This document shows positions 3,474-37,800 of a DNA stretch of 37,800 bases, in pieces. The position numbers were made by a program, and so were the translations under genes. The DNA is from a virus. The notes under the pieces are model-generated. The model made no database searches. It was not told where the DNA came from and was given only the letters and a program-made list of their open reading frames with translations. The stretch spans positions 1-37,800 of the IMG/VR virus record IMGVR_UViG_3300035666_000077; one strand, given 5' to 3'. How positions within the stretch are numbered: position 1 is the first letter of the stretch; every line of letters starts with the position of its first letter.

Positions 3474-4691
3474 TTAGACAACACCTTGGGCTTTTCGTTC
3501 AGCCTTTCTTGCGAGAATCGCCTTCATGGCCTCGCTGCGGCGTTGGCGTTCCTCTGAAGAAAGCATGCGTTTTTTCTTCTTTTTAGGCGGATCTTGTTTG
3601 ATTGCCCGCATTTTTTTTTCCCTTGTGGTTATACCTACAGCCTCGCACAAGACTTGGATGGGATATGGGGCGTAATTCGCCTCTTCTGATGTTTTGTTGC
3701 AAACCGTAGTACCTTGCAAACAAGTGTCTACATTTTGTGTCACTTCCTGCAATGATATGTCGGGTTCCCGAACGGGTATATGAACAATCTCAATTTCGTC
3801 TCCTACAGAGACATTGGAAAAAGCCTGTTCCTGATCGGGTATACTTTCTAATCCCATGGAATTCGATGGGATATCTAATCCCGTGGAATCTGACGGCATT
3901 ACAGGTTTATCTTCGGGCATTGGAAATCCCGCAATAGCCATCTTGTGGAGAGATCCGTCTTTGCATCCGTGGATAACCACAGCTTTACTGGAGATAACTC
4001 TATCGGGACAGGTGACTCCTTGAATGGCTTGGGATTCGGGGTCTTCGGCAAAGAAGACAATCTTCCCATCCTTCCATTGGTAGTTCACACTCCTCCAGTA
4101 GGTTCGCATGAGAGGGCAGTCCCGACCAATGGCCATGAAGTTCCAGCGACAACGAACGTCCCAAGGCTCTGGAATAGATCCAGCAGAGCGGTAGGCCAAA
4201 TTGTAGTTGTCGAGGCTTCGGGCCGATGGGCAGAAGTCCAAGAAATTGGGTGGATAGATGGCACTACCCACAATCATTTTGTAGATATTCTTCCCATTGG
4301 TGGCCATGCCCCCTTCGTATTGGTGGCCAAGGATGGCGGGTTCTTTGCGGAATTCGGCCTCAAGGTCATCAGCCCAGCCTTGTTTCATGGGGACACAATC
4401 GGGCTCCCAGAACATCCAAGGCTCGTTGACGGAGTAGCATTGTGCCGCCGCATCACTGAACATCTGGTTGGGGCCAAGAGGCCAACCATTGAACCCGTCT
4501 TGGGCGATGATTCTGCCGACTTCGGGAAAGCTTTTCTTCAACTCTTCGATAATATCGAATAGTAGGGCGCTATCGTTCGTGGCACATACGGTGGCTTTAT
4601 GTCGCATGTTTATGCCAAAAGAGGTGATAGCTTTAGCAGATAGCAAAGCCAACTCCGCATCTCCGTTGTGGTAGGCAAAGACAATGTTCAT
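3474..4691 (-). CDS. Glycosyltransferase-like protein (GT-A fold type) with lysine-rich tail
   Basis: The 405-residue protein has an N-terminal half (about 1-270) resembling GT-A glycosyltransferase-like phage proteins. A DxD-like site lies in PWMFWEPDCVPMKQGW, followed by IVGSAIYPPNFLDFCP. The same layout appears in the protein encoded at 28490-29275 (PWLLWETDMIPARPDW, NGGAVYPSDV), so the two are probably paralogous. Residues about 275-375 are low-complexity and include a short internal repeat (SDSTGLDIPSNSMGLESIP). The C-terminus is very basic (PPKKKKKRM, then RKAERKAQ) and might bind nucleic acid. A Shine-Dalgarno GAGGAGA precedes the ATG, which overlaps the upstream stop as ATGA. The substrate is unknown. 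Confidence 0.65.
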   Translation of the reverse strand: MNIVFAYHNGDAELALLSAKAITSFGINMRHKATVCATNDSALLFDIIEELKKSFPEVGRIIAQDGFNGWPLGPNQMFSDAAAQCYSVNEPWMFWEPDCVPMKQGWADDLEAEFRKEPAILGHQYEGGMATNGKNIYKMIVGSAIYPPNFLDFCPSARSLDNYNLAYRSAGSIPEPWDVRCRWNFMAIGRDCPLMRTYWRSVNYQWKDGKIVFFAEDPESQAIQGVTCPDRVISSKAVVIHGCKDGSLHKMAIAGFPMPEDKPVMPSDSTGLDIPSNSMGLESIPDQEQAFSNVSVGDEIEIVHIPVREPDISLQEVTQNVDTCLQGTTVCNKTSEEANYAPYPIQVLCEAVGITTREKKMRAIKQDPPKKKKKRMLSSEERQRRSEAMKAILARKAERKAQGVV

Positions 4692-24789: not shown

Positions 24790-24954
24790 ATGAACTGGAA
24801 TAAATACATAGCAATGATGGTTGTGCTTACGGCTTTTGTTGCCATCATCACGGCAGTCGAGGCTCCGCGCAAACCAAAGAAGGAGGGTGAGACAATCTAT
24901 GTCCTACCCCTCGTAGAGGATATGCCCGCTGTGGCGAATCCCCTGCAATTCTAA
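24790..24954 (+). CDS. Small membrane-anchored or secreted protein (54 aa)
   Basis: MNWNKYIAMMVVLTAFVAII followed by TAVEAPRKPKKEG has a signal-anchor-type segment and then a basic linker and a Pro-rich acidic tail (LPLVEDMPAVANP). It is the last gene before the strong terminator. Confidence 0.55.
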   Translation: MNWNKYIAMMVVLTAFVAIITAVEAPRKPKKEGETIYVLPLVEDMPAVANPLQF

Positions 24955-24964
24955 TCAAGGCAAG

Positions 24965-25015
24965 ATCAACCAAGGGGAGGGGGCAGATTGCCTCCTCCCT
25001 TTTTATTTGGTTGAT
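24965..25015. terminator. Bipartite strong terminator, probably bidirectional
   Basis: An inner 11-bp stem (GGGAGGGGGCA with TGCCTCCTCCC, one mismatch, 3-nt loop) is followed by five T residues. An outer 9-bp stem (ATCAACCAA 24965-24973 with TTGGTTGAT 25007-25015) encloses it. It ends the long plus operon and insulates the glycan module. Confidence 0.88.
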
Positions 25016-25048
25016 TACCCACTATCCCTGTACTAGCTTGGGGCGAAC

Positions 25049-25065
25049 CTAGTCAGGGGGACTAG
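25049..25065. promoter_or_regulatory. Inverted repeat upstream of the glycan module
   Basis: CTAGTC (25049-25054) and GACTAG (25060-25065) flank AGGGG, 19 bp before the ATG at 25085. TAGAAT (25063-25068) could be a -10 element overlapping the right arm, as for a repressor operator. No good -35 is visible at proper spacing. Confidence 0.4.
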
Positions 25066-25084
25066 AATAATTTTAAAAAATAAC

Positions 25085-25852
25085 GTGATGATAACGACAA
25101 ACCACTTGAGATCCGCTTACGAGAATAATTCTTTTTCGTTTGGGAATTCGGGAGCTTCATCCGTAATTTGCTTGGTTGGAAGTTGTCGCATTGTTCCAAT
25201 CCTCAACTATTTACGCGCATACAACGAACTGAGCGGACATCCGTTTGAGTTGTTATGCTTCAATCCAGTTGAGATGTGGCGCGGGGTGGGAACGGATGTC
25301 GGAGACTGTGCCACCGAACTCCTCAAGAATTACCGCTTCGGGAAAGTGGACTTCCTTGTCAGTGAGCATACAGTGCGCTGCGGGGCACTTAACACCGTGG
25401 CTGGAACGACTCCCAACATTTTTGACACTCTTGGCTGCAATCCCAGCTTGCATGTGCGCTTGCCTAATTGGAACAACATGCACATATTCGATGCGGAGAC
25501 CGCTATGTGGGATGCGAGCTATGCGAATATGGCCGTGGAGGAGAGGGTTTGCAAACTCAAGCAACAGTCGGATCTGCATAAAAGTCGATTTATCACCTAC
25601 TGTCAGCAGTGCAGCTTTCCAGAAATAACCGATTGGGTGGAGTCTGAGTGGCTGACCACCCGCATGGGCTGGAGCAGCAACCACCCAAGCCTTCCGCTAA
25701 TCTGGAGGATCTTCAACGGTGTGGCTGGGAAGCTGGGCATTACGATCACTCCAGAATTGGCGGCACATCCGATGTGCGTGACCGATGTCTATGCATCAAC
25801 TGGAATACCACTCAACAAAATCGACTACGAGGCCAATAACTGGAAATTCTAA
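25085..25852 (+). CDS. WcbI-like polysaccharide-modification protein (255 aa)
   Basis: An N-terminal strand-turn ICLVGSCRIVPILNYLRAYN (about residues 28-47) resembles the GNCQ-type start of WcbI-like proteins, which act in capsule biosynthesis. Later blocks are VDFLVSEHTVRCGALNTVAG and HVRLPNWNNMHIFDAETAMW. No confirmed catalytic triad is visible. It is the first gene of a six-gene unit with methyltransferases and glycosyltransferase-like proteins, which supports a role in sugar modification. Confidence 0.5.
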   Translation: MMITTNHLRSAYENNSFSFGNSGASSVICLVGSCRIVPILNYLRAYNELSGHPFELLCFNPVEMWRGVGTDVGDCATELLKNYRFGKVDFLVSEHTVRCGALNTVAGTTPNIFDTLGCNPSLHVRLPNWNNMHIFDAETAMWDASYANMAVEERVCKLKQQSDLHKSRFITYCQQCSFPEITDWVESEWLTTRMGWSSNHPSLPLIWRIFNGVAGKLGITITPELAAHPMCVTDVYASTGIPLNKIDYEANNWKF

Positions 25853-25857
25853 CAACT

Positions 25858-26643
25858 ATGAAAATCGACAGAGTAATGCTGGTGTGGGACGGGAACCCGT
25901 TCTACGAAGGGTTTTATGAAATGCATGAGAAACTGTGGGCGAGGCTCGGAATCAATACTGGTCTTGTGTTCATATCGAATGGTACCAACGCCCATGCGAT
26001 TCCAAAGACGGGCGATGTCCGTGTTCTTGAAGACCGAAGCACAGTTCCGTTCTCACCGCCCCCAAAACGAAGCTGGAAGGCCACCATGGGGATTATCCAC
26101 GGGCCGCGCCTGTTCCCCAACGAAGTCGTTATGGTCACTGGGATGGATCAGTTTCCCGCCAGCAAAAGATTTATAAACGCGATTGAATCCATTCCAGAGG
26201 ACGAGCTTGTGACCGCATTGGGAAGCAGGGATCACATCACAACCAACCATATTGTCGCCCATTGTGATGTATGGTCAAAAATCATGGAACCCGCTCCGAT
26301 GGATTTCACCGAATTTCTTGAATGGACTTGGGCGCTCAACCTGAACGTCGATGGCCACAGGGACGCCAACCAGCAGACTATCGCCGTAGGATGGGGGAAT
26401 GACGAAGTGCTGTTTGCGAAACTTGTCCGCGAGTCTGGAGTGAAGGTCCGCACCGTCTTTGATGACCCTTGGCCGCAATGGCTAGACAGGGTTCTTGGCA
26501 TAACACAAACAACTCCAGATCCAGAAAAGCTGCGATCAGGTTGGTATTCAGAGTTACACATCAGGCTTCCAATGTCAGACTTGGACAGAAACACATTTGA
26601 TACACTATGCAACATGAACCAATTCCCAATAGGAGATAAATAA
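25858..26643 (+). CDS. Glycosyltransferase-like protein (261 aa)
   Basis: MKIDRVMLVWDGNPFYEGFY begins a Rossmann-like strand. A DxD-like GMDQFP sits in VVMVTGMDQFPASKRFI at about residues 91-107, then NNHIVAHCD-like and NQQTIAVGWGNDEVLFAKL segments follow, as in GT-A transferases that place a metal-binding site after a hydrophobic strand. Family assignment is weak; position in the module supports it. Confidence 0.5.
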   Translation: MKIDRVMLVWDGNPFYEGFYEMHEKLWARLGINTGLVFISNGTNAHAIPKTGDVRVLEDRSTVPFSPPPKRSWKATMGIIHGPRLFPNEVVMVTGMDQFPASKRFINAIESIPEDELVTALGSRDHITTNHIVAHCDVWSKIMEPAPMDFTEFLEWTWALNLNVDGHRDANQQTIAVGWGNDEVLFAKLVRESGVKVRTVFDDPWPQWLDRVLGITQTTPDPEKLRSGWYSELHIRLPMSDLDRNTFDTLCNMNQFPIGDK

Positions 26644-26645
26644 TT

Positions 26646-27161
26646 ATGGATACAAATACATTAACAGAAAAACCCTCAATGGATTGGGGGAGCCACCTCC
26701 CAGCTTTGGTAGCATGTGTCGCAGCCTGCGATGGACCCGTGTTGGAGATTGGGGCAGGCCACCATTCAACCCCCGTTTTGCATTCTCTGTGCGCGGTGCT
26801 TGGCAAAAAGCTTGTCACGGTTGAGGCAGAAGATGTGTGGCGCGAAGTTTTCGCGGATTACGCGACTGATAACCATAAGGTTCTCAAGCAGACAGACGAA
26901 TTGCTGGTTGCGCTGGCCTCCGAAAAATGGGGTGTTGTATTTGTGGATGATCTGAAGGGTCCGCGAGACGAAAGGGCGCGTCTGTTTTGCCGCTCCTCAC
27001 AGTTTATGGTGTTCCACGATTACTCCATGCCATTCTTTGGTGGGCCGCTGGATGAATGGCTTGGGTCGGAGAAGTTCAACTCCTTTGTCTATCGCCGTTA
27101 CGATCCTCATACGCTAGTAGTATCGGCTAACTCCGATATACCCGTCTTCTCGCCACAATGA
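26646..27161 (+). CDS. SAM-dependent methyltransferase-like protein (171 aa)
   Basis: A class I motif I GPVLEIGAGHHSTPVL (about residues 30-45) and an acidic strand after it (LVTVEAED) fit SAM binding. WGVVFVDDLKGP matches motif IV and FHDYSMPF a later motif. The protein is short. It ends with ATGA coupling to the FkbM-type methyltransferase gene, so the two may act on the same sugar or peptide substrate. Confidence 0.65.
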   Translation: MDTNTLTEKPSMDWGSHLPALVACVAACDGPVLEIGAGHHSTPVLHSLCAVLGKKLVTVEAEDVWREVFADYATDNHKVLKQTDELLVALASEKWGVVFVDDLKGPRDERARLFCRSSQFMVFHDYSMPFFGGPLDEWLGSEKFNSFVYRRYDPHTLVVSANSDIPVFSPQ

Positions 27162-27811
27162 AAATGCTTCCGAACGGAATCTGGGTGTTGGAGAATGACA
27201 CCCACATTTCCAAGTGGGTCGAGGAACACAATAGCCTGAAGTGCGATCCATACCTCTTTGAGTGGCTTAAACCCCGCATACAAGACTGCAAGGTAGTATG
27301 GGATGTCGGAGCCAATATCGGTGATCACACAAGATTCTATCTGGATTTAGGTATGGAGGTGGTGGCATTTGAACCACATCCCGAAGCCTTTCAATGTTTG
27401 CGCCACAATTGCGGTGAGGCTATTTGCTACAACCTTGCCGCCTCGGATGAGAAACAGGAACTCACAATGGCTCTTGATGACAATGTCGGTGCTTCCCATG
27501 TAGTCGAAGGCGGGACTGTGGTGATCTCGGCATCCACGCTGGATTCAATTGCCACCCACCACAATACTCCAGATTACATTAAAATTGACGTTGAGGGATT
27601 TGAGCCACGGGCCCTACGAGGAATGGAGTATCTGATGCGAGATCATAAGCCCAAGCTATTCGTGGAACTTAACGATGGAGCATTGAAGCGCAATGGATCA
27701 AGCTCCGCTGATCTTAAAAAACAAATAGAATCTTACGGATATACTCAGTTTGAAATCTATCCACCGAATTGCAGTTTAACCGATCCGCAGTATGACCTCT
27801 TCTTCTTTTAA
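27158..27811 (+). CDS. FkbM-family methyltransferase (217 aa)
   Basis: The SAM-binding motif VVWDVGANIGDHTRFYLDLG (about residues 46-65) is followed by VVAFEPHPEAFQCLRHN, the acidic STLDSI, and the FkbM signature PDYIKIDVEGFEPRALRGME. FkbM enzymes O-methylate sugars or polyketides. The full domain is present. The start is an ATGA overlap, and the end overlaps the next gene by 20 bp. Confidence 0.88.
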   Translation: MKMLPNGIWVLENDTHISKWVEEHNSLKCDPYLFEWLKPRIQDCKVVWDVGANIGDHTRFYLDLGMEVVAFEPHPEAFQCLRHNCGEAICYNLAASDEKQELTMALDDNVGASHVVEGGTVVISASTLDSIATHHNTPDYIKIDVEGFEPRALRGMEYLMRDHKPKLFVELNDGALKRNGSSSADLKKQIESYGYTQFEIYPPNCSLTDPQYDLFFF

Positions 27812-28493
27812 TCCCCACTACCTAATTCGCACCTACGAAAAGGATCGGGATTGGCTGATGTATTGCTTGGCCTCCATTCGCAAGTGGGAACCCGACATCT
27901 CAATCACTGCCGTGGCTCCAGTTGGTCACGATGTTGGATGTCCCGTGACTCATGTCGAACCAATGAATCCAGATGGGTATGTTGACCAACAATATACCAA
28001 GCTCAACGCCGATCTCTATGTGCCGTCTTCTGCCACCCATGTGATTCATATGGACTCGGATTGCCTAATGATTGGCAGGCTTTCGGGTATGATTGTGGAT
28101 GGTAAGCCCGTGATGCTTAAAACCCCGTATAGTCAGTTGGACGATCAGGCTGTGGTTTGGCAGGGTGTTACCGCCCACTACATTGGGTTTAATCCTGACT
28201 ACGAATACATGAGGCGGATGCCACTTGTATATCCCATCGGGATATACGCCAAGGTTCGGGACCATCTTGCGGAACGCCATGGCCCTTGGGAGGAGTGGTT
28301 CCCTAAGATTGAAGGACGAAAACTAAGTGAGTTTAATATCCTCGGAGCCTATGCCGAACGTTTCATGGCGGAAGAATTCCATTGGATCGATACAAGTAAG
28401 GAAGAATTGCCCCCACTGGTGGCCCGTCAGGGGTGGAGTTGGGGCGGATTGGATGCGGTTCGGGCGGAGTGGAAGGCCCTCATGGCACAATGA
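27792..28493 (+). CDS. GT-A-type glycosyltransferase-like protein (233 aa)
   Basis: The N-terminus YLIRTYEKDRDWLMYCLASI and the strand THVIHMDSDCLMIGRL carry a DxD motif (DSD at about residues 83-85), typical of nucleotide-sugar and metal binding. Later HYIGFNPDYEYMRRMPLVYP resembles DUF6492-type transferases. A C-terminal segment QGWSWGGLDAVR is present. It overlaps the FkbM gene upstream and the next gene (ATGA). Confidence 0.7.
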   Translation: MTSSSFNPHYLIRTYEKDRDWLMYCLASIRKWEPDISITAVAPVGHDVGCPVTHVEPMNPDGYVDQQYTKLNADLYVPSSATHVIHMDSDCLMIGRLSGMIVDGKPVMLKTPYSQLDDQAVVWQGVTAHYIGFNPDYEYMRRMPLVYPIGIYAKVRDHLAERHGPWEEWFPKIEGRKLSEFNILGAYAERFMAEEFHWIDTSKEELPPLVARQGWSWGGLDAVRAEWKALMAQ

Positions 28494-29275
28494 ATCCTGA
28501 TCTGTCGAGAAGTTCCCCCGTATGCAGGACCGAACCCCCAGAGGGTTACAAGTGGGAACTCCCACCATTCAATGTGGCGTTTCAGTTCTGTGCCAAGGAC
28601 TACACCCAAGCTTTGCGGGTCATCAAGTGGAGTCGGGATTTGGCCCACCAACCCAACGAACTCCATCTGGTCACAGACGAGGGGTTCATGTGTGATAGCT
28701 TGATTGAAATGGCCCGCTCCTCTTGGGGCTCGGTTGTTGTCCATCGAATCAAACCCTGTAGCTCGGCATGGCCCGCCTGTAACAACCATGCGTTTGCCGA
28801 AACCTGCAAACTAATGAAGGGACTGGGCAAGCCTTGGCTCCTCTGGGAGACCGATATGATCCCCGCTAGGCCAGACTGGCTACAGGTTCTGGAAAACGAG
28901 TATATCGAGGCTTCTCGGCCCTTTATGGGGGTATGGGTGGAGGCTTACGATATCCTCAATGGGGGAGCAGTCTACCCCTCGGACGTTATGGCTTGGTGTC
29001 CCCAGTTCTTTGCGGGATCGGCTATAATTCAGCCCGCCTTTGATTGTGCCATAGCCCCTGATGTAATTTGGTTTACCCATCCCTGCAACCACCTGATGGC
29101 TAATGTCTTCTTTACCAGACCCAACGGAAGACCCTCTATTGCCATCCCGAATATTCCCAGTTGGAATAAAAGATTGTTCGACTGGACTGTTACCCACCAT
29201 ACCTGCTTGATCCATCGGGACAAGAAGGGTGAGACAATCGGTTTCCTGCGGGAGAAATTCGGTATTCGCGAATAG
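28490..29275 (+). CDS. Glycosyltransferase-like protein (261 aa), paralogue of 3474-4691
   Basis: From ATG 28490 the protein has VAFQFCAKDYTQALRVIKWS, then PWLLWETDMIPARPDWLQVL with an acidic DxD-like site, then NGGAVYPSDVMAWCPQFF. The same layout occurs in the 405-aa protein at 3474-4691. A final segment (IPNIPSWNKRLFDWTVTHHT) is unique. It ends the glycan module 3 bp before the convergent end of the giant gene, with no terminator between. Confidence 0.65.
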   Translation: MNPDLSRSSPVCRTEPPEGYKWELPPFNVAFQFCAKDYTQALRVIKWSRDLAHQPNELHLVTDEGFMCDSLIEMARSSWGSVVVHRIKPCSSAWPACNNHAFAETCKLMKGLGKPWLLWETDMIPARPDWLQVLENEYIEASRPFMGVWVEAYDILNGGAVYPSDVMAWCPQFFAGSAIIQPAFDCAIAPDVIWFTHPCNHLMANVFFTRPNGRPSIAIPNIPSWNKRLFDWTVTHHTCLIHRDKKGETIGFLREKFGIRE

Positions 29276-29278
29276 CAA

Positions 29279-32200
29279 TTAGCGTCCGCTGCGGATAGCC
29301 TTGATTTCTTTCTCTTCTTCTTTGCGGGCTTTGATCATGTCGCGGCGACCCTTGTCCCACATTCTGGCAAAGTCGGCATCGTTGAATCCACCAAGATACA
29401 ACCAATCACTAATTAGTGCGACATAGAGGAACCTCTGTTCTTCGGGTGTGAACCTCTCCATCTCTTCTGGGTTCAGAACCATTTTGGTATTAAGGATGGA
29501 CTTCTTGGCCTGATCCATGCCGATATCCAAAATGCCAAGGCTGAAAGCATTGTCGAATGAGCGATAGCGATAGAACGGTGCGCGTTCTTTTGCGTATTCA
29601 TTAAACGACATGATATCACCGTCATCATCCAAGACAGATTCGCTTTCGTTTGCTGTGTCTATCATGTATTTGATATAGTTCATTCCGTCAATTGTGTAGC
29701 TTTCAACCATCTGCCCGAATCCGCCGACAGCCATAGTTGAAATTATGTCGCCCTGTAGTTGACGCCACTTCTGTTCAAATTCTTCTTTTTTCTTTTCCTC
29801 GTCTGGCTCTTCAACGTCAACCCCGAAAATAGAGTAAAGAATCTTAACTCCGCCATAAGTAATTGCAGGAAGGACAAACCTCTTGGCCAATCCAAACATT
29901 ACGGTTCCGCCGATTGTCGCGCTCAAATCCTTTACAGCAATAGCCTTTCCTTTCCAGTCGCCAGACTTGGTAAATATTTCCGTAAGATCTGAAGATACCC
30001 TAGCCCTAAATTGAACTCCGAAAGAGTTGAACGGAACCAGAATGGCCTTTAATAAGTTCTCAGATCCAGTTTTTCCCTTTTGTGCGAACACCGCCATCTT
30101 GGTTGGATCGGAAGACCCCTGATAAATGTCGGTCATGTTCTCGGCATAAGCTGCCGCCCTCTTGTGGCCAGTATCATCGGACTTGATTAGGTTGGCGGCG
30201 TCCTCCCAATTTGTAAATCTGATTCCGTTCTTGGCCAGATATGCTCTATAAAACGTCATCCAAGTAGCGGCGGCAACCGTGAAATCGGAAACTTTTAGCG
30301 GAGTCATAAATTTGTCGGCAAATCGTGTGGCTGCTTCTTTGGCTTTAACCCAATTGCCTTCTGTGTAGTAACGCTCAAGGCGAGACTGCGCTCCCTCCAT
30401 TTGGTTGATATATTTGTAGCCAGATGAAGCATCTCCACGGCGACCAATTGAAAAAAGATCAAGGACGGGGCGGGCATTTTTAATGCTGCGAGGAGCCAAA
30501 TGTTCGGCCATCAAATCCGCCCTACCAGTAGCCCCAACAGCAACCGTGACCTGATCTGCTGGCTGTCTGATCAATTGATAGGAGCCAGCCAAGGCGATTC
30601 TTGTGCCAATGTCTCGACCAAGGTTGGCTATAACATCCACAGCCTTGCCGAAGAATCCTTCGTTAAATGAGCCTCTGCGCTCGCGTGAGCCCATAAGTCT
30701 TTCAATACGATCAGCAAAGAAGTCCAAATTAGCCTTACCTCCAAGTGCCTCTTCCGCCTGTGGAGTTTTAAGGAATGAGTAAATGCGCTGGCGGGCGGGG
30801 TTTGTGTAGGCCCTTGTAATCTGATCAGACAAAGAATTGTAAGCATTCTTTCTGAGGTTGAGACCGATTTCTTTTGGTGTCCTTCCATCACTACCCATTG
30901 GTAGCTGTGTGTAATCAGAACGCTTGATTGTGTAAGAAGACTGTTTGGGAGATGAGGAAAGATTGTCGTAATACTTCTTTTTTCCTTGTAGCAAATCCAG
31001 CGCAGGAGTTGCGTTTGAATAAATAATCGGAAGATAGTTTGGCGTATTGTAATTGTTTGCTTGGTCGTTGAAATTCTCGTCAGAGACTTTCAGGAAATCT
31101 TTGTATTGCGGAAACAGGTCATCTTTGAGCCACATCAGCGATTCATAGTTAGCTGGGTATTCGCGCTTCAGATTTGAAAGCATTTGATCGACGGTGTCGC
31201 CATCAAGTTTCTGAATGAGTTGCTGAATGCGATCTGCCATTTGTATTTTGTCTTCATCACCAGACTTGCGAAGTTCAACAATATTTTGCTGCATAAGTCC
31301 TCTGCGTTGTGCCAAGGAGTCAGCCTCTCCTTTTGCTGGCACACTCTGGATAAGGTAGGCAACTATGCCCTCGGAAAGAATGCCATCTTGTGCGCGGGCT
31401 GCTCCTTTGTATTTCTTGTCCAGTTTATCGTAGAACTTTGCCATCTTCTCTTGAATCTCTTCAAGGGTTCGGGCTGCTTGTGTAAACCCAAGGTCAAGAT
31501 CAACCATGCCCATAGCCTCGTAAAATACGGTCATAGCTTCTTTGCCAAAAGCATTACGGAAAGTGTCGGCAATCGACTGAAGTTCGGAGGCCCAAGACTT
31601 CAGTAGCTTCTTGGCCTTACGCGATCCAAGGGATGGTAGGATATTTGCCCATGCCCTGTTCTTGGTCATTGCTCCCGTGTTCTTGGCAAGGTCGCGGGCG
31701 GCTTGCTGTCCTTTGGCTGTGGCTACAAAGAATTCCGCGCCATTGGTCTGATTGTTATTAAAGATGATGTTATTCCCGATTCGGATATACGCCTGTTTTT
31801 CAGCGGAATCCAGAGACTTAACGTCAATGACCTTCATGGAATCAATGAGCTTGCGCTGATCGGCTCTGAGTATTGTTGTGTCAACGCCCCTCAAAGCTTC
31901 TTTTACACCAGACGATTTTTCATTTAAGATCCCTTCGATGGCCTCGCGTTTGGCATAGCTTTCCAATGCATCCATGATGTCTTCGGCGTCCAAGAACCTC
32001 TGCAAATCGTTGACGCTAACTCCGTATTTTTCAGCCAGCTTTTCATTGTCTTCGACATCAAACTCGGCCTTCGCGGAAACAACCTCGTCTTCTGCCGCCG
32101 AAAGGTAGCTCTCCATTTCGGCATCGGGCACAACCACATAAGCCTCGGATACCACGGGCTTGAAGCTGCGGAGATAGTGGTTTACCACATCGGAAAACTC

Positions 32201-35200
32201 ACGGGGATCGTTTAGAAGGTTGATTCCAACATTGCCAATAGCCTCCAAAACAAACCGCTGGGGTGCGGCAATAGAATCCCGCTTGGAAAGTTCTTTGGCC
32301 CTCTTCTGTGCGGCTTTGGCTTCACGCAAATCCGCATCGTAATTTGTGTTAGCCATAACCCTCTCGGCATAGGCCATAAAGTTCTCCATGGACTTCTCGC
32401 TAGTCCAGATGACTTTGGCTGCACGTTTGGCTAGGGCTTGGGCCTGCTTCGCCCGCATAGGCCCGCGCAACTCCAGAGCTTTGATGGCCTCTACTACGGC
32501 ATCTGCGGTCTCCTGCTGGGCTTTCTTGGCCTCGCGGGTCTCCCGTGCTTTGAGTCGGATCTGCTCTTTGAGGGCGGTCTTCTCTGGGACTTGGAGGATG
32601 ACGGGCTTAACTCGGACTCCCGTAGTGGCATCAATCACCCTTTGAAGGACAGTTCTTTTATTTTTGGGATCAACATCTTTCGGGATTTCCATGCCCTCTT
32701 GAAGTCCCTCCAAGGTTACCCCCGTCTCAGTTTCAAGGACGGCTTCGGCTATTTGCTGTTGCTTGTCGTATTGCTTGGCAATAGCATCAGCCACCTTCTT
32801 GGCATTGGCTGGCGTGAGGTTGGTATACTCCACCACCATGTCTTGGAGTTGGCGGGTATCTCCGCCCTGATCCATCCAGACAGAGGCTATCTCGCTGATC
32901 TTGTAGGTGGGTTTGTTTTCGGGGTTTGGCTTGCCCTCGGACGCCGTATCCACCTTGGCCATAGACTCCTTCATATTAGAAAGAGTAGATGCTTCGGGGC
33001 TTCCCTCGGAGAAGGTGGGGATGGCGTCTTCTCTGCGGGATTCACGGATAGAGTAGCGGATGTCGGGCGTTGTCTGCTGGAATCTTTCGGAGAGCGGGAT
33101 GACATTGCCTTGATCGTCGTAGGTTACGGGGTTGGCGGATTTGATTTGATTTATATTTTTTACAACAGCCCATTGCGAACCATGCGGAAACGTCAGAATT
33201 GAAACATCATTTGTGTTTTCTTTTGGCCACTGAACCTGAGATCCCTCTAATGTCTTTGTAAGCTCTCTTGCTATACCTTCATCAGCCACTCCGCTTTGTG
33301 AAAAAACGTAATATCGTTTTGGTTCATCGTCTTTTGAATACCTTCTTGAAAGACTTTTCTTTTGCGCCAACCATAGTGGTCTTTTTATTCTTTCTGGTTC
33401 TGCTGATTCAGCGCGATACCAAGCGACACCTTTTAAAGGAGGATAAACTACGCTTCCATAGTCGGTATTATCGGCATTTGTTCCACGAACATCAATTCCA
33501 TCAAATCCAAGTTCCTGCATTAAATATGTTGATGGAGTTCTAAATCCATCATTTTGATTCTGATTAAACATGCGTTCAATCCGAATCATAGCTTCGCGAA
33601 TTTTCTGTTCGCTGTTTCCAGAAATTTGACGCCCTATCGCAATGTCTATTAAAGACAAAATTCTACGCCCATCGAATCTTGGTTCTTTAAATTTTAATTT
33701 TTGTTTTTTCCTTATTTCTTCATTAAAAATCCTTAATCTGTCGTGAAATTCCATTGCCAGTGATTCTGGCTTGGCCATATTTAATCCAGATAAATCTATA
33801 TTTACAACTGGCCTTCCCTCTCTACCAAATCCAACTTCTTTTTTTCCAAGAAAATATGTTCCAGTTCCAAAATGACCAGTTCCCCTTCCGTCCATTCTCT
33901 TTAAAATTGTATCTCTAGCTGTTCCAGCATCTCCGTAATGGTAAGCCCCAGTGTCTTCAGATGTTATTACAGCCCTAATATTTGAGGGATCATTGGGTTC
34001 TATTGCGCCTGCTTGTTTAGCCACCGCATCCACCATCTTCTGTAATTCTTCCCTGTTGGATTCGGGGTTCTTCGCCAACTCCAAGAACCGCGCATTCTCT
34101 TCGGGTGTGACGAAAGCCCGACCCTCTCTAGCCTCTCCCTGCACATTGATAAATTTGTTGTATGCCTGTTTGAATTCGGCGTTGATCTCGGAGACATTGC
34201 GGGCCGCAATGTATTCGGCGGCTCGGCGTGTCAACTTATAGCCCAGCTTGTTGGCCCATGCCTCAACACGCGCCACAGCCCGTTCAAACCAGCGTCTGCC
34301 CCTCCATCCTTCGGCTAGTAGCTCGACGGCTCTAGCGGCTTCCTCGGCGGTTCTGGCCTTCTCTGCGTAGCCCAACCTAGTGATGGCATCATTGATTTCT
34401 TTTCTTTCTTTCGGGGTCAACCCCGCAACCAAACGATTAAGTGCTCCATCGGCATTGGCACTTTCTGCAATCTCATGGTTTAGGACTCGCTCTATAGCAG
34501 CATCGTCTTTTAAGGCTGCGGCGTTTAGCTCAATGGATACTACCTTCCCGTCTCGGATGATGGTGCGGCCCTCAAAGGAAGCATCGGGCTGATTAACCAC
34601 CGATACGATCCCACCCCGCCCAAATCCCAAAGACTCCAGCTTGGTCGCTACTGCTTCTGGCTCCATGCCAGCAGGGCGCGGCATCTCAATCCTCTTATAC
34701 CTTATATCTTCTTCTGTGGGCTGGAAGCGTTGGCTGGGAGGGATGATGTTGCCGCGATTGTCGCGAGTAATAGCATCTGCCGATTTAACTTGAGACGGCT
34801 TAAATACAACCGTGGCGTAGTCGCCAATAATAATTGCTGTCGCCTTATTTCTTTCTCGGAAAATTCTAATCCAATCTTTTGGCTTACCAGAATTTTGCCA
34901 CTCTTTAACCTGTTCTGGGGTTAATGTTATTGGATTGCTTCCTAGATCAGCATACGCATTAATGACTGTGGTTGGATATTCTCCAGAGCTAGGAGTTGCC
35001 ATCTTCTTGTCAAAGGCCAACCAGATTCCAGTGAGTTTTTTCCTAAACCTATTGATTACCGAAGCTTCTGTTCCGTGAAAAAGCGGAAGAACTTGGTAGC
35101 CACCCCGCCTAGCCGCTTCATCCACAATGCGCTGTTGAGTTTCGGTGTCGCCGCGATCCACCGCATCCAGATACTCTCTGTCTTGTTGGGTAATTGGAGC

Positions 35201-37800
35201 GGGTTCCCTGCGGGATTCTCTTACTTCGGGGGCGGGGGACGGGGTTCGGCCTCCAGCCAGAAGAAGGTCTCCTTCTGTAGCCAACTCAAATGCTGATCTG
35301 GAAACAACGTCCAGCACAGATCCAGCTTTCACTTCAATGCCTAGGATTCGGGCGATGGCGTCAATGATCGTTTGCCAGACAGTCTTGCCTCCCTCCATCT
35401 CAATCTCGTTGAGGGCTTTTTGGAATTCGGGGTTGCTCAGTGCTTCGGAAAGGAACTCATCAATATTCCCAAGACCGTATTCAAATCCGTATTCGACAAC
35501 CGCATCGGGATCGTTGGCAACGGGAGGCTTTTTATCCATTATCTGCCAAGATAGGCTTCCGTTGGACTGGTCAAATCCTTTACCGCGCAACTTGCGTTTT
35601 GATGGGTGGAGTCCAACCTCTTCTTTCGGAATTGTTATCTTTTCCAAATCTGACTGCGCGACAACCACATCATATCGATTGCCGTCTTGTCGCTTTACAT
35701 CAACTTCGGTTATGCCGCTTTCTTTGAGGTATTTGAGGACTCTTTTGACGTTCGTCATTCCCTCGACCTCAAACATCCTGCCGCCTTCGCGCTGGGCCTT
35801 GGTTGGATTTTGAACTCTGCCAATAACCCCCTTATAGACAGAACTTCTCCAAATTGTTCCGCCTCTACTTCCACGAAACGGGCCTTCACCCCACAAGGTT
35901 TCAGCAGCACCCATCTTTTCCGCTGCCAAGACGTATCCGCGAATGATGTCGCGAAGCGGCTTCGGAAGCGTTTTATCAGCGATGGCTTTGTCTAGTGCTT
36001 TCTTGTATCGCTTGCCACGCAAGTTGTCGGACGATATTTCTTTGGGAAGTTTGTAAACCAGTATTGCATGGATGATCTCATGCAGTGTTATGCGGACATC
36101 AGCAGCTTGGTTCGGATGCATCCGTATTGTTCTGTCCGCTGTTTCGTAGAACGATCTCCCCTTCAACCTTCCCTTATCTCTAGCGGGCGTTGTTCTGGTA
36201 AACCTTGTGATGTCTATAGCAAAGTTTATTTCTGGATTTGTTTTCGCCGCATCCAGAATGGTTTGAGCCAATTGTGCGTATGGGGTGTTGCCTTTCGCTA
36301 TAACCTCCAATACTTGAATTGCCCTTGAAGAAGGGCGCCCCTTCTCTGTCAGGGAAAGATTGGCAACGGCTTCGTCCGTATATTTAGTTTTTGTTGTGGG
36401 GGGAGTTATGGGTTCTTCTGGCTCAACAGCAGCTTCCGTTGGCTTCACTTGAGGCACAAGATTCTCCTGTGCTTTCGCCGCATCCTCGTTGATGACCAAG
36501 ATGTGTTTGACGGGGCCAGCATCGGTATCGTGCATCATTGCCACCGCATCGTATCCATTCTTGCGTAGCCATTGGGCAAACAGAGAGCCACGCACATCTT
36601 CTTTTGTCCTCTCGGAAAGTCCGCGCTGGATCAAAGCCGCTCTCGTCCTGTCCATATCGTTGCGGAAGTATTGCCATGTGGGCTGTTTGTCATCGGGGTC
36701 TCCGACAATATCCAGTCCGTAGCGATTCACTTCATTAGTTACCTCCCTCGGCACATCTTTCCATTTCCAGTTTTCTGGCAGGGTGTAGCCCATCTCTTTG
36801 GCGACCAACTCATACATTTTGGCGAAGTCGGCAGTAGTGCCCATTTCAGTGATGTCGAAAACCTTGCGGGGGCGAATCTTCTTGGAGACTACTTGACCTT
36901 CAGTGCGGGGGTCGAAGCCGTGTAGACTCTGAAACATTTTCATTCCCTCTTCTTCACCGAATCGGTCTTGATAGTCTTTTAGAATTCGGGCATCCCGCTC
37001 CAGATATGCCCTAGCATCCTGCTCACTTGTGCTGTAGTAGGTGAACGGGGCAAGAGCCACATCATCTGGCAGTCCAACCAGTTCGCCAAAATCCCGAATC
37101 CCAGCAAGCTGTCTTCCCCCTTCAAGAGCGGGTAGTTCACCACGATACACTGTTACCTCTTCGCCAACCTCCTGTGGTGCGGGTTTCGGGCGATACACCA
37201 TAGGAATTCCCATTGTTTTTGTCGGGCCTTCGGGGTCGCGCTCCCATCCAAGAGTCTTATAGAAGTTAAAGAGTTCCCTTGGCGTCATGTATCCCTGTTC
37301 GCGTATCTCTTGAGGAGTGCGATATTGTCTGTCTGCTGGCGCGGTTAAGGCTTCTCCCTTGAGTGTGACATTGTTTTCATCAGCCCAGCGGAGCATGTTA
37401 GTCATTGCTTCGCGCCCGATACCCTGACGGCGTTCTTCTCGCGGAACCCTGAATGATTCCAAATATAAAGTATTCTCGTCAGACTTGGTGGTATCGATAT
37501 CAAACCTGACGGGAACACCCCGAACATCCATCTCAAATGATTTAAACTCTGGTAGCTCCGCAAGATCTTCGCGTTCTTTTGGTTGAACAATTTGAGATAG
37601 TTTCGCCTCTGCTGTAGTTGGCTCTCCAGCGGCGACCTCTTGCGGAGCGGGCGGCACATAGATATCTCCATCCAGTGTCCAGCCTGCTGGCATACGCACA
37701 CCTGTTCCTACCTGATCTACCCCGATACGAAGACCCTTCGCGATGGCTTCGGCTACTACTTCGTTTGCTCCTGTGTCGATCTGGATCTTTCGGGCTTCGG
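29279..37800 (-). CDS. Giant mosaic polyvalent phage protein, N-terminus beyond the window
   Basis: The minus frame is open from the stop at 29279 to the right edge, giving more than 2,800 residues; the first codons at 37697-37699 (GTG) are not the true start, since the frame runs on upstream without a stop. Domains by coordinate: GNAT-like (37200-37540, ESFRVPREERRQGIG); ADP-ribosyltransferase-like (36470-37165, VYRG, YYSTSEQDARAY); zincin HEIIH (36069-36083); HGTE-type segment (35050-35090); degenerate NHEIAES (near 34475); GTGHFGTGTYFLG (33850-33890); two GN(V/I)IP-x-S-x-RF linkers; then about 1,250 mostly helical residues with a hydrophobic stretch near 29830-29930. Polyvalent proteins are injected or virion-linked counter-defence proteins in phages and conjugative elements. 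Confidence 0.8.
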   Translation of the reverse strand, partial: EARKIQIDTGANEVVAEAIAKGLRIGVDQVGTGVRMPAGWTLDGDIYVPPAPQEVAAGEPTTAEAKLSQIVQPKEREDLAELPEFKSFEMDVRGVPVRFDIDTTKSDENTLYLESFRVPREERRQGIGREAMTNMLRWADENNVTLKGEALTAPADRQYRTPQEIREQGYMTPRELFNFYKTLGWERDPEGPTKTMGIPMVYRPKPAPQEVGEEVTVYRGELPALEGGRQLAGIRDFGELVGLPDDVALAPFTYYSTSEQDARAYLERDARILKDYQDRFGEEEGMKMFQSLHGFDPRTEGQVVSKKIRPRKVFDITEMGTTADFAKMYELVAKEMGYTLPENWKWKDVPREVTNEVNRYGLDIVGDPDDKQPTWQYFRNDMDRTRAALIQRGLSERTKEDVRGSLFAQWLRKNGYDAVAMMHDTDAGPVKHILVINEDAAKAQENLVPQVKPTEAAVEPEEPITPPTTKTKYTDEAVANLSLTEKGRPSSRAIQVLEVIAKGNTPYAQLAQTILDAAKTNPEINFAIDITRFTRTTPARDKGRLKGRSFYETADRTIRMHPNQAADVRITLHEIIHAILVYKLPKEISSDNLRGKRYKKALDKAIADKTLPKPLRDIIRGYVLAAEKMGAAETLWGEGPFRGSRGGTIWRSSVYKGVIGRVQNPTKAQREGGRMFEVEGMTNVKRVLKYLKESGITEVDVKRQDGNRYDVVVAQSDLEKITIPKEEVGLHPSKRKLRGKGFDQSNGSLSWQIMDKKPPVANDPDAVVEYGFEYGLGNIDEFLSEALSNPEFQKALNEIEMEGGKTVWQTIIDAIARILGIEVKAGSVLDVVSRSAFELATEGDLLLAGGRTPSPAPEVRESRREPAPITQQDREYLDAVDRGDTETQQRIVDEAARRGGYQVLPLFHGTEASVINRFRKKLTGIWLAFDKKMATPSSGEYPTTVINAYADLGSNPITLTPEQVKEWQNSGKPKDWIRIFRERNKATAIIIGDYATVVFKPSQVKSADAITRDNRGNIIPPSQRFQPTEEDIRYKRIEMPRPAGMEPEAVATKLESLGFGRGGIVSVVNQPDASFEGRTIIRDGKVVSIELNAAALKDDAAIERVLNHEIAESANADGALNRLVAGLTPKERKEINDAITRLGYAEKARTAEEAARAVELLAEGWRGRRWFERAVARVEAWANKLGYKLTRRAAEYIAARNVSEINAEFKQAYNKFINVQGEAREGRAFVTPEENARFLELAKNPESNREELQKMVDAVAKQAGAIEPNDPSNIRAVITSEDTGAYHYGDAGTARDTILKRMDGRGTGHFGTGTYFLGKKEVGFGREGRPVVNIDLSGLNMAKPESLAMEFHDRLRIFNEEIRKKQKLKFKEPRFDGRRILSLIDIAIGRQISGNSEQKIREAMIRIERMFNQNQNDGFRTPSTYLMQELGFDGIDVRGTNADNTDYGSVVYPPLKGVAWYRAESAEPERIKRPLWLAQKKSLSRRYSKDDEPKRYYVFSQSGVADEGIARELTKTLEGSQVQWPKENTNDVSILTFPHGSQWAVVKNINQIKSANPVTYDDQGNVIPLSERFQQTTPDIRYSIRESRREDAIPTFSEGSPEASTLSNMKESMAKVDTASEGKPNPENKPTYKISEIASVWMDQGGDTRQLQDMVVEYTNLTPANAKKVADAIAKQYDKQQQIAEAVLETETGVTLEGLQEGMEIPKDVDPKNKRTVLQRVIDATTGVRVKPVILQVPEKTALKEQIRLKARETREAKKAQQETADAVVEAIKALELRGPMRAKQAQALAKRAAKVIWTSEKSMENFMAYAERVMANTNYDADLREAKAAQKRAKELSKRDSIAAPQRFVLEAIGNVGINLLNDPREFSDVVNHYLRSFKPVVSEAYVVVPDAEMESYLSAAEDEVVSAKAEFDVEDNEKLAEKYGVSVNDLQRFLDAEDIMDALESYAKREAIEGILNEKSSGVKEALRGVDTTILRADQRKLIDSMKVIDVKSLDSAEKQAYIRIGNNIIFNNNQTNGAEFFVATAKGQQAARDLAKNTGAMTKNRAWANILPSLGSRKAKKLLKSWASELQSIADTFRNAFGKEAMTVFYEAMGMVDLDLGFTQAARTLEEIQEKMAKFYDKLDKKYKGAARAQDGILSEGIVAYLIQSVPAKGEADSLAQRRGLMQQNIVELRKSGDEDKIQMADRIQQLIQKLDGDTVDQMLSNLKREYPANYESLMWLKDDLFPQYKDFLKVSDENFNDQANNYNTPNYLPIIYSNATPALDLLQGKKKYYDNLSSSPKQSSYTIKRSDYTQLPMGSDGRTPKEIGLNLRKNAYNSLSDQITRAYTNPARQRIYSFLKTPQAEEALGGKANLDFFADRIERLMGSRERRGSFNEGFFGKAVDVIANLGRDIGTRIALAGSYQLIRQPADQVTVAVGATGRADLMAEHLAPRSIKNARPVLDLFSIGRRGDASSGYKYINQMEGAQSRLERYYTEGNWVKAKEAATRFADKFMTPLKVSDFTVAAATWMTFYRAYLAKNGIRFTNWEDAANLIKSDDTGHKRAAAYAENMTDIYQGSSDPTKMAVFAQKGKTGSENLLKAILVPFNSFGVQFRARVSSDLTEIFTKSGDWKGKAIAVKDLSATIGGTVMFGLAKRFVLPAITYGGVKILYSIFGVDVEEPDEEKKKEEFEQKWRQLQGDIISTMAVGGFGQMVESYTIDGMNYIKYMIDTANESESVLDDDGDIMSFNEYAKERAPFYRYRSFDNAFSLGILDIGMDQAKKSILNTKMVLNPEEMERFTPEEQRFLYVALISDWLYLGGFNDADFARMWDKGRRDMIKARKEEEKEIKAIRSGR

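What the first reader, a model, noticed from the sequence alone, without database searches (positions are those of the whole stretch)
25085..29275. Compact glycan-modification module carried by a phage
Six consecutive plus-strand genes encode a WcbI-like protein, three glycosyltransferase-like proteins and two methyltransferases (one clear FkbM). They are insulated by a strong terminator upstream and joined by overlaps. The set could glycosylate and methylate virion proteins, modify DNA-linked sugars, or alter host surface sugars to block superinfection.
Basis: partly seen in the sequence, partly recalled or inferred. Interest (0 to 1): 0.6.

Follow-up and report, generated by a model that had tools for sequence, protein, structure and literature searches.

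The report
Phage sugar-tailoring cassette with swappable genes
An uncultured bacterial virus carries a six-gene cassette that probably builds and trims a small sugar decoration; parts of the cassette are fused together, exchanged between close relatives and tied to the head-building genes in related viruses, so the sugar most likely coats the virus particle itself, though this is not proven.

Summary
The six plus-strand genes (25088-29275) and the strong terminator before them are real. g4 is a clear FkbM methyltransferase. g5 is a DUF6492/GT2-type and g6 a GT-A (GT8/glycogenin-like) glycosyltransferase. g2 is a probable GT-A enzyme, linked through a distant bacterial homolog. g1 is WcbI-like with the Cys/His pair kept. 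g3 is only methyltransferase-like.

Relatives exist only in uncultured viral contigs. g4, g5 and g6 stay together in shuffled order and are fused into one 708-aa protein in two records. In close relatives the g5-g6 core is under purifying selection, while the genes between terminator and core are swapped cleanly: g1-g4 for a set with an RmlC epimerase and two methyltransferases, or g1-g3 absent. In related phages found by a capsid-like gene rather than by the cassette, 54 of 56 carry g6 or more inside the terminase/portal-like/capsid-like cluster; in 24 of 25 simpler ones g6 overlaps the portal-like start.

Best reading: cytosolic glycosylation and tailoring of a virion protein. Host-surface or DNA targets are not excluded. 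Phage-encoded glycosylation is known; this composite, exchangeable, head-linked version is a new variant. Portal and capsid identities rest on gene order only.

The parts
24972..25002 (+). Intrinsic terminator closing the upstream gene and insulating the cassette; also the upstream breakpoint of cassette exchange
25007..25069 (+). 63-nt element after the terminator, 57 of 63 identical in L016, where it leads directly into g4; candidate promoter/leader of the cassette
25088..25852 (+). g1, WcbI-like protein (putative CoA-dependent acyl transfer); invariant Cys33 (GSCR) and His199
25858..26643 (+). g2, probable GT-A-type glycosyltransferase of a new family; distant Verrucomicrobiota homolog with a DMD motif beside a GT2 gene
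   Evidence: structure model inconclusive
26646..27161 (+). g3, class I methyltransferase-like protein (LEIGxGxxSTP motif); weak Methyltransf_24 match in one homolog
27158..27811 (+). g4, FkbM-family methyltransferase
   Evidence: dN/dS 0.08
27792..28493 (+). g5, glycosyltransferase (DUF6492/GT2-like), both aspartates of the DSD motif invariant
   Evidence: dN/dS 0.06-0.07
28490..29275 (+). g6, GT-A fold glycosyltransferase (glycogenin/GT8-like); invariant E120-x-D122, D185, H242, K245
3474..4691 (-). Divergent paralog of g6 with a basic C-terminal tail, next to a DnaB-like helicase gene
29279..37699 (-). 2806-aa polyvalent-type protein, convergent with the cassette; the gene after the cassette in L014-L016 too

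Best explanation
The cassette encodes a soluble, cytosolic pathway that attaches a short glycan to a phage particle protein (most likely a head, portal or ejection protein) and tailors it. Shown: g6 is predicted with confidence to have a GT-A fold; g5 belongs to a GT-A-like family; g4 is an FkbM methyltransferase; g4-g5-g6 belong to one pathway, since they are co-inherited in shuffled order and fused into one polypeptide in two records. Inferred: g6 and g5 add sugars in turn, g2 adds a further sugar, g4 (and perhaps g3) O-methylates, and g1 transfers an acyl group from CoA. Upstream tailoring genes are exchanged at a fixed junction, which would change the sugar coat while keeping the core enzymes. 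The virion as acceptor is inferred from persistent embedding of the core in the head-gene cluster of related phages.
For: Families: FkbM 1.6e-20. The g5 family matches DUF6492 in 20 of 25 members, GT2 in 4 and Stealth_CR2 in 8. g6 AlphaFold2 model pLDDT 83.6 matches glycogenin, GT8, Fringe and CHSY3 at Z 14-15 over about 200 residues. The g1 family matches WcbI in 4 of 9 members (best 0.0026) and keeps an invariant Cys and His, as in WcbI Cys14/His201 (PMC4104973). g2 has a bacterial homolog at 8.7e-10 with ISDMDMIP, beside a GT2 gene at 7.3e-20. Unit: 48 of 49 viral records with g5 hold at least one more cassette gene, in about 15 arrangements; a 708-aa g6-g5-g4 fusion occurs in L093 and L100, a g6-g5 fusion in L044. 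Sugar supply in swapped cassettes: RmlC 3e-67, Methyltransf_24, GT11 2e-22; NAD-epimerase 6e-65. Virion link: g5 lies between portal-like and capsid-like genes in 20 of 20 records holding both; in records chosen by the capsid-like gene instead, 54 of 56 have g6 or more in the cluster; g6 overlaps the portal-like start by 4-8 bp in 24 of 25. No hydrophobic stretch of membrane-segment strength in any of the six, and no integrase in the window or its three closest relatives.
Against: The portal-like and capsid-like genes have no family match; their names rest on gene order next to a confirmed terminase. In the window's own lineage the cassette lies on the strand opposite to the presumed structural genes, and no portal or capsid gene of that type was found there. 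No glycan, acceptor site or virion has been observed. g2 and g3 are weakly assigned.
Confidence: 0.55

Rival explanations
1. The cassette remodels a host surface polysaccharide or lipopolysaccharide core during infection, blocking superinfection or wasteful re-adsorption (like lysogenic-conversion or exclusion genes, but in a phage without a detected integrase).
For: FkbM, WcbI-like and DUF6492-like genes are typical of bacterial polysaccharide loci (own knowledge), and a g4-g5 pair sits on a Verrucomicrobia contig beside dnaE. Swapping of tailoring genes at a fixed junction resembles surface-antigen loci.
Against: No membrane protein, flippase, polymerase or lipid-carrier enzyme in the cassette. 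No integrase in the window or its closest relatives. Long-term linkage to the head-gene cluster in related phages is unexpected for a surface modifier.
Confidence: 0.22
2. The enzymes glycosylate hypermodified bases in the phage DNA, protecting it from restriction.
For: Phage glycosyltransferases that modify DNA are well known (cited in PMC12619734). The g6 paralog at 3474-4691 lies beside a DnaB-like helicase gene and has a lysine-rich tail; several g6 homologs have basic tails.
Against: No thymidylate-synthase/hydroxymethylase family member in the window or its three closest relatives (one of 20 records positive). WcbI- and FkbM-type tailoring is not known for DNA glycans (own knowledge). 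The records may be incomplete.
Confidence: 0.1
3. The products modify a small molecule, a signal or an immune nucleotide, or act on a host protein rather than the virion.
For: All six proteins look cytosolic, and no acceptor has been identified.
Against: The number and variety of sugar-tailoring genes in exchanged cassettes fit a structural glycan better than a small-molecule modification.
Confidence: 0.1

Closest known systems
Virion glycosylation by phage-encoded glycosyltransferases in mycobacteriophages (Freeman et al. 2023, cited in PMC12619734)
   Same: Phage genes for glycosyltransferases; a virion protein as acceptor is the favoured reading here and shown there.
   Different: Here acceptor and glycan are unknown; different enzyme set (DUF6492-like, g6 GT-A, FkbM, WcbI-like) with fusion and cassette exchange; phages not cultured and host unknown.
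FkbM-family methyltransferases (Pfam PF05050, TIGR01444)
   Same: g4 is a member by score (74.4 against a cut-off of 22.7 bits).
   Different: Acceptor unknown; fused to two glycosyltransferases in two relatives.
WcbI capsule-biosynthesis protein (Pfam PF18588; structure paper PMC4104973)
   Same: Weak profile match to the C-terminal part; conserved Cys near the first strand and conserved His.
   Different: Below the family cut-off; found in phages next to g2, g3 and g4 rather than in a capsule locus.
GT8/glycogenin and Fringe-type GT-A glycosyltransferases
   Same: g6 model superposes over about 200 residues at Z about 14; acidic E-x-D and a late His/Lys are invariant.
   Different: Only 7-12% identity; E-x-D in place of D-x-D; no Pfam match; donor and acceptor unknown.
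Phage serotype-conversion (gtr) operons
   Same: Glycosyltransferase cassette with exchangeable specificity genes.
   Different: No GtrA/GtrB-like membrane proteins and no lysogeny genes found.

Membership tests
FkbM methyltransferase (g4) | Score above the curated cut-off of PF05050/TIGR01444 | tested here: met
   74.4 bits vs 22.7; 93.6 bits vs 37.7
GT-A glycosyltransferase fold (g6) | Rossmann-like nucleotide-sugar fold | tested here: met
   Model pLDDT 83.6; Foldseek E about 1e-6, Z 14-15 to GT8/glycogenin/Fringe
GT-A glycosyltransferase fold (g6) | Metal-binding acidic motif (DxD or variant) | tested here: inconclusive
   E120-x-D122 invariant in 15 homologs; its superposition on the glycogenin DxD was not checked residue by residue
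DUF6492/GT2-like glycosyltransferase (g5) | Profile match | tested here: inconclusive
   The window protein itself has no match; 20 of 25 homologs match DUF6492 (best 1.4e-7) and 4 match GT2
DUF6492/GT2-like glycosyltransferase (g5) | Conserved DxD | tested here: met
   D88 and D90 invariant in 25 homologs
GT-A glycosyltransferase (g2) | Fold | tested here: inconclusive
   Model pLDDT 49.6; profile comparison with g5 and g6 negative; bacterial homolog with DMD motif
WcbI (g1) | Score above the PF18588 cut-off | tested here: not met
   Best E 0.0026 among 9 homologs; window protein 12.7 bits vs 29.2; filed as WcbI-like, not as a member
WcbI (g1) | CoA-contacting Cys and His | tested here: met
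   C33 and H199 invariant in 9 homologs; WcbI Cys14/His201 per PMC4104973; equivalence inferred from position, not superposition
Class I SAM methyltransferase (g3) | Profile match or fold | tested here: inconclusive
   Methyltransf_24 E 0.022 in one homolog; motif LEIGxGxxSTP
Virion glycosylation system | Glycan on a virion protein | not testable with these tools
   No isolate; only gene linkage
gtr-type serotype conversion | Membrane flippase/bactoprenol transferase plus lysogeny | tested here: not met
   No membrane-strength hydrophobic segment in the six proteins; no integrase (the record may be incomplete)
DNA base glucosylation | Modified-base precursor synthesis (hydroxymethylase of the thymidylate-synthase family) | tested here: inconclusive
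   No PF00303 match in the window and its three closest relatives; records may be incomplete

The most novel reading that the evidence does not exclude
In a large, so far uncultured group of tailed phages, glycosylation is a near-core step of particle assembly: a GT-A glycosyltransferase gene overlaps and is probably translationally coupled to the portal gene, and swappable sugar, methyl and acyl genes give related phages different particle 'sugar serotypes'.
Probability: 0.4. Interest if true: 0.75.

Novelty: new variant of a known kind. Interest (0 to 1): 0.55.

Why it matters
Glycosylated phage particles have been shown in mycobacteriophages, and it is open how widespread they are. Here a glycosyltransferase is a near-constant member of the head-gene cluster of a large uncultured phage group, with exchangeable tailoring genes. 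If the target is the particle, this offers a concrete, testable system for particle sugar coats and their diversification, including a single 708-aa GT-GT-methyltransferase fusion that could be assayed alone. It also supplies candidate activities for DUF6492, DUF3431 and WcbI-like proteins.

Tried and rejected
Direct family searches of the six window proteins: only FkbM. Searches of cultured phages for g1, g2, g5 and g6 gave no match at DNA or protein level; g4 gave only distant FkbM hits. PDB profile searches for g1, g2, g3 and g6: nothing useful. The AlphaFold2 model of g2 was too poor to search, and profile-profile comparison of g2 with g5 and g6 was negative. Genome-contig scan for g2: none; a phylum search found one distant homolog. 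A capsid-like/portal-like identity check by Pfam, PHROGs, PDB profiles and tblastn failed, so these names stay positional. The LPD38 search was uninformative because no control rang. A phage-wide promoter motif was looked for in the 63-nt element; it recurs only in L016. 'The cassette moves as one unit' was rejected: g5-g6 divergence (dS 0.6-1.2) is similar to that of the DnaB-like gene in the L016 record (dS 0.92), so the core looks inherited with the genome and the upstream genes are what change. Host assignment was not resolved; the Verrucomicrobiota links are only suggestive.
Full report
OBSERVATION. The six plus-strand ORFs are present. g6 is better started at ATG 28490, a 4-bp overlap with the g5 stop, and g1 possibly at ATG 25088. 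A strong terminator precedes the cassette (24972-25002). The carrier is an IMG/VR virus record with a terminase fragment at its left end, a DnaB-like gene and a 2806-aa polyvalent-type gene convergent with the cassette.

WHAT THE PROTEINS ARE. Alone, the window proteins give only FkbM for g4. With relatives the picture improves. The g5 family matches DUF6492 in 20 of 25 members, GT2 in 4 and Stealth_CR2 in 8, with both aspartates of its DSD invariant. g6 has a confident AlphaFold2 model (pLDDT 83.6) with a GT-A fold, best matches glycogenin, GT8, Fringe and chondroitin synthase at Z about 14, and an invariant E-x-D plus a late His and Lys. g1 matches WcbI weakly in 4 of 9 homologs and keeps a Cys and a His in positions that fit the CoA-contacting pair reported for WcbI. 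The g2 model is poor, but a Verrucomicrobiota genome encodes a homolog at 8.7e-10 with the motif ISDMDMIP, next to a GT2 gene, so GT-A is likely but not shown. g3 is methyltransferase-like only.

RELATIVES. No cultured phage in the collection has g1, g2, g5 or g6. Uncultured viral contigs do. Among 49 distinct viral records with g5, 48 hold at least one other cassette gene, in many orders: g6-g4-g5 in 17, g5-g4 in 6, g4-g5-g6 in 5, and others. These records were found by searching with cassette genes, so presence of the query gene is by construction; the partners are not. Two records encode one 708-aa protein with g6, g5 and g4 domains in that order, and L044 has a g6-g5 fusion. Fusion and persistent linkage in shuffled order are strong evidence for one pathway.

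EXCHANGE AT A FIXED JUNCTION. The closest relatives (L014, L015, L016) share the g5-g6 core at 73-92% protein identity. Against L014 and L015 the DNA homology stops at about 25006, the end of the terminator, and resumes at 27807, the start of g5. Against L016 it covers 25001-25069 and then jumps to codon 8 of g4, so g1-g3 are cleanly absent there. The L014/L015 replacement carries two unassigned proteins, two Methyltransf_24 proteins, an RmlC epimerase (3e-67) and a DUF3431 domain fused to g5. Other relatives carry a GT11, a GDP-fucose-synthase-type epimerase, or a C-methyltransferase with an epimerase. Core genes are under purifying selection, dN/dS 0.06-0.16, with dS similar to that of the DnaB-like gene. 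So the core is kept and the tailoring genes vary.

LINK TO THE HEAD GENES. In all 20 records that hold both, g5 lies between a portal-like and a capsid-like gene. Because those records were chosen by cassette genes, I searched by the capsid-like gene instead. Of 56 such records with enough upstream DNA, 54 have g6 alone or with more cassette genes in the terminase/portal-like/capsid-like cluster. In the simplest type g6 overlaps the portal-like start by 4 or 8 bp in 24 of 25 records. These records are related, so they represent a few lineages rather than 56 independent cases, and 'portal-like' and 'capsid-like' rest on gene order and size next to a terminase confirmed by homology; all family searches for them were negative. 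In the window's own lineage the cassette lies elsewhere, convergent with the polyvalent gene, and no such portal or capsid gene was found; further GT-like genes (GT2-like, DUF3431) do lie in its presumed structural cluster.

MECHANISM. The best-supported reading is a soluble pathway that glycosylates a particle protein and methylates and perhaps acylates the sugar, with specificity changed by swapping the upstream genes. Absence of membrane segments and of an integrase argues against a gtr-like conversion operon. Absence of a thymidylate-synthase-family enzyme in close relatives argues mildly against DNA glycosylation. Neither is excluded, since records may be incomplete and LPS-core enzymes can be soluble. 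A g4-g5 pair next to dnaE on a Verrucomicrobia contig suggests where such genes may come from, but not the host.

COMPARISON AND NOVELTY. Phage-encoded glycosylation of DNA, host surface and virions is known; virion glycans are reported for mycobacteriophages (cited in PMC12619734). This case differs in enzyme families, in the GT-GT-FkbM fusion, in the exchange of tailoring genes and in the near-constant head-cluster location. I rate it a new variant of a known kind, interest 0.55.

Noticed in passing
window 3474-4691 (-): Divergent g6 paralog with a lysine/arginine-rich C-terminal tail, beside a DnaB-like helicase gene; similar basic tails occur in other g6 homologs. Could bind nucleic acid or an acidic scaffold; unexplained.
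   Followed up: partly
window 29279-37699 (-): 2806-aa polyvalent-type protein whose N-terminal and central parts differ strongly between otherwise close relatives; domain content not resolved.
   Followed up: partly
window 24790-24954 (+): Short ORF before the terminator with a hydrophobic N-terminus, C-terminal NPLQF conserved in L014-L016; possible small membrane protein.
   Followed up: no
L093:2790-4916, L100:4116-6242: Single 708-aa protein combining g6 glycosyltransferase, g5 glycosyltransferase and FkbM methyltransferase domains.
   Followed up: yes
L002:16693-18117 (-): MptE-like domain (as in motility-associated glycosylation factors) fused to a methyltransferase domain in a phage contig that also has two integrases.
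   Followed up: no
L141:883-6419: Cassette of g6, g5, another GT-like gene, g1, a methyltransferase-like gene, an epimerase-like gene and a C-methyltransferase-like gene directly before the capsid-like gene.
   Followed up: partly
L081:2065-3736 and L082:2920-3738: g5-like genes next to dnaE on Verrucomicrobia/Opitutae contigs, one with an FkbM neighbour; possible bacterial source of the core pair.
   Followed up: partly
L062:5418-6197 (-) and L062:12645-13325 (+): GT2-like and DUF3431 genes inside the presumed structural cluster of a close relative of the window phage.
   Followed up: partly
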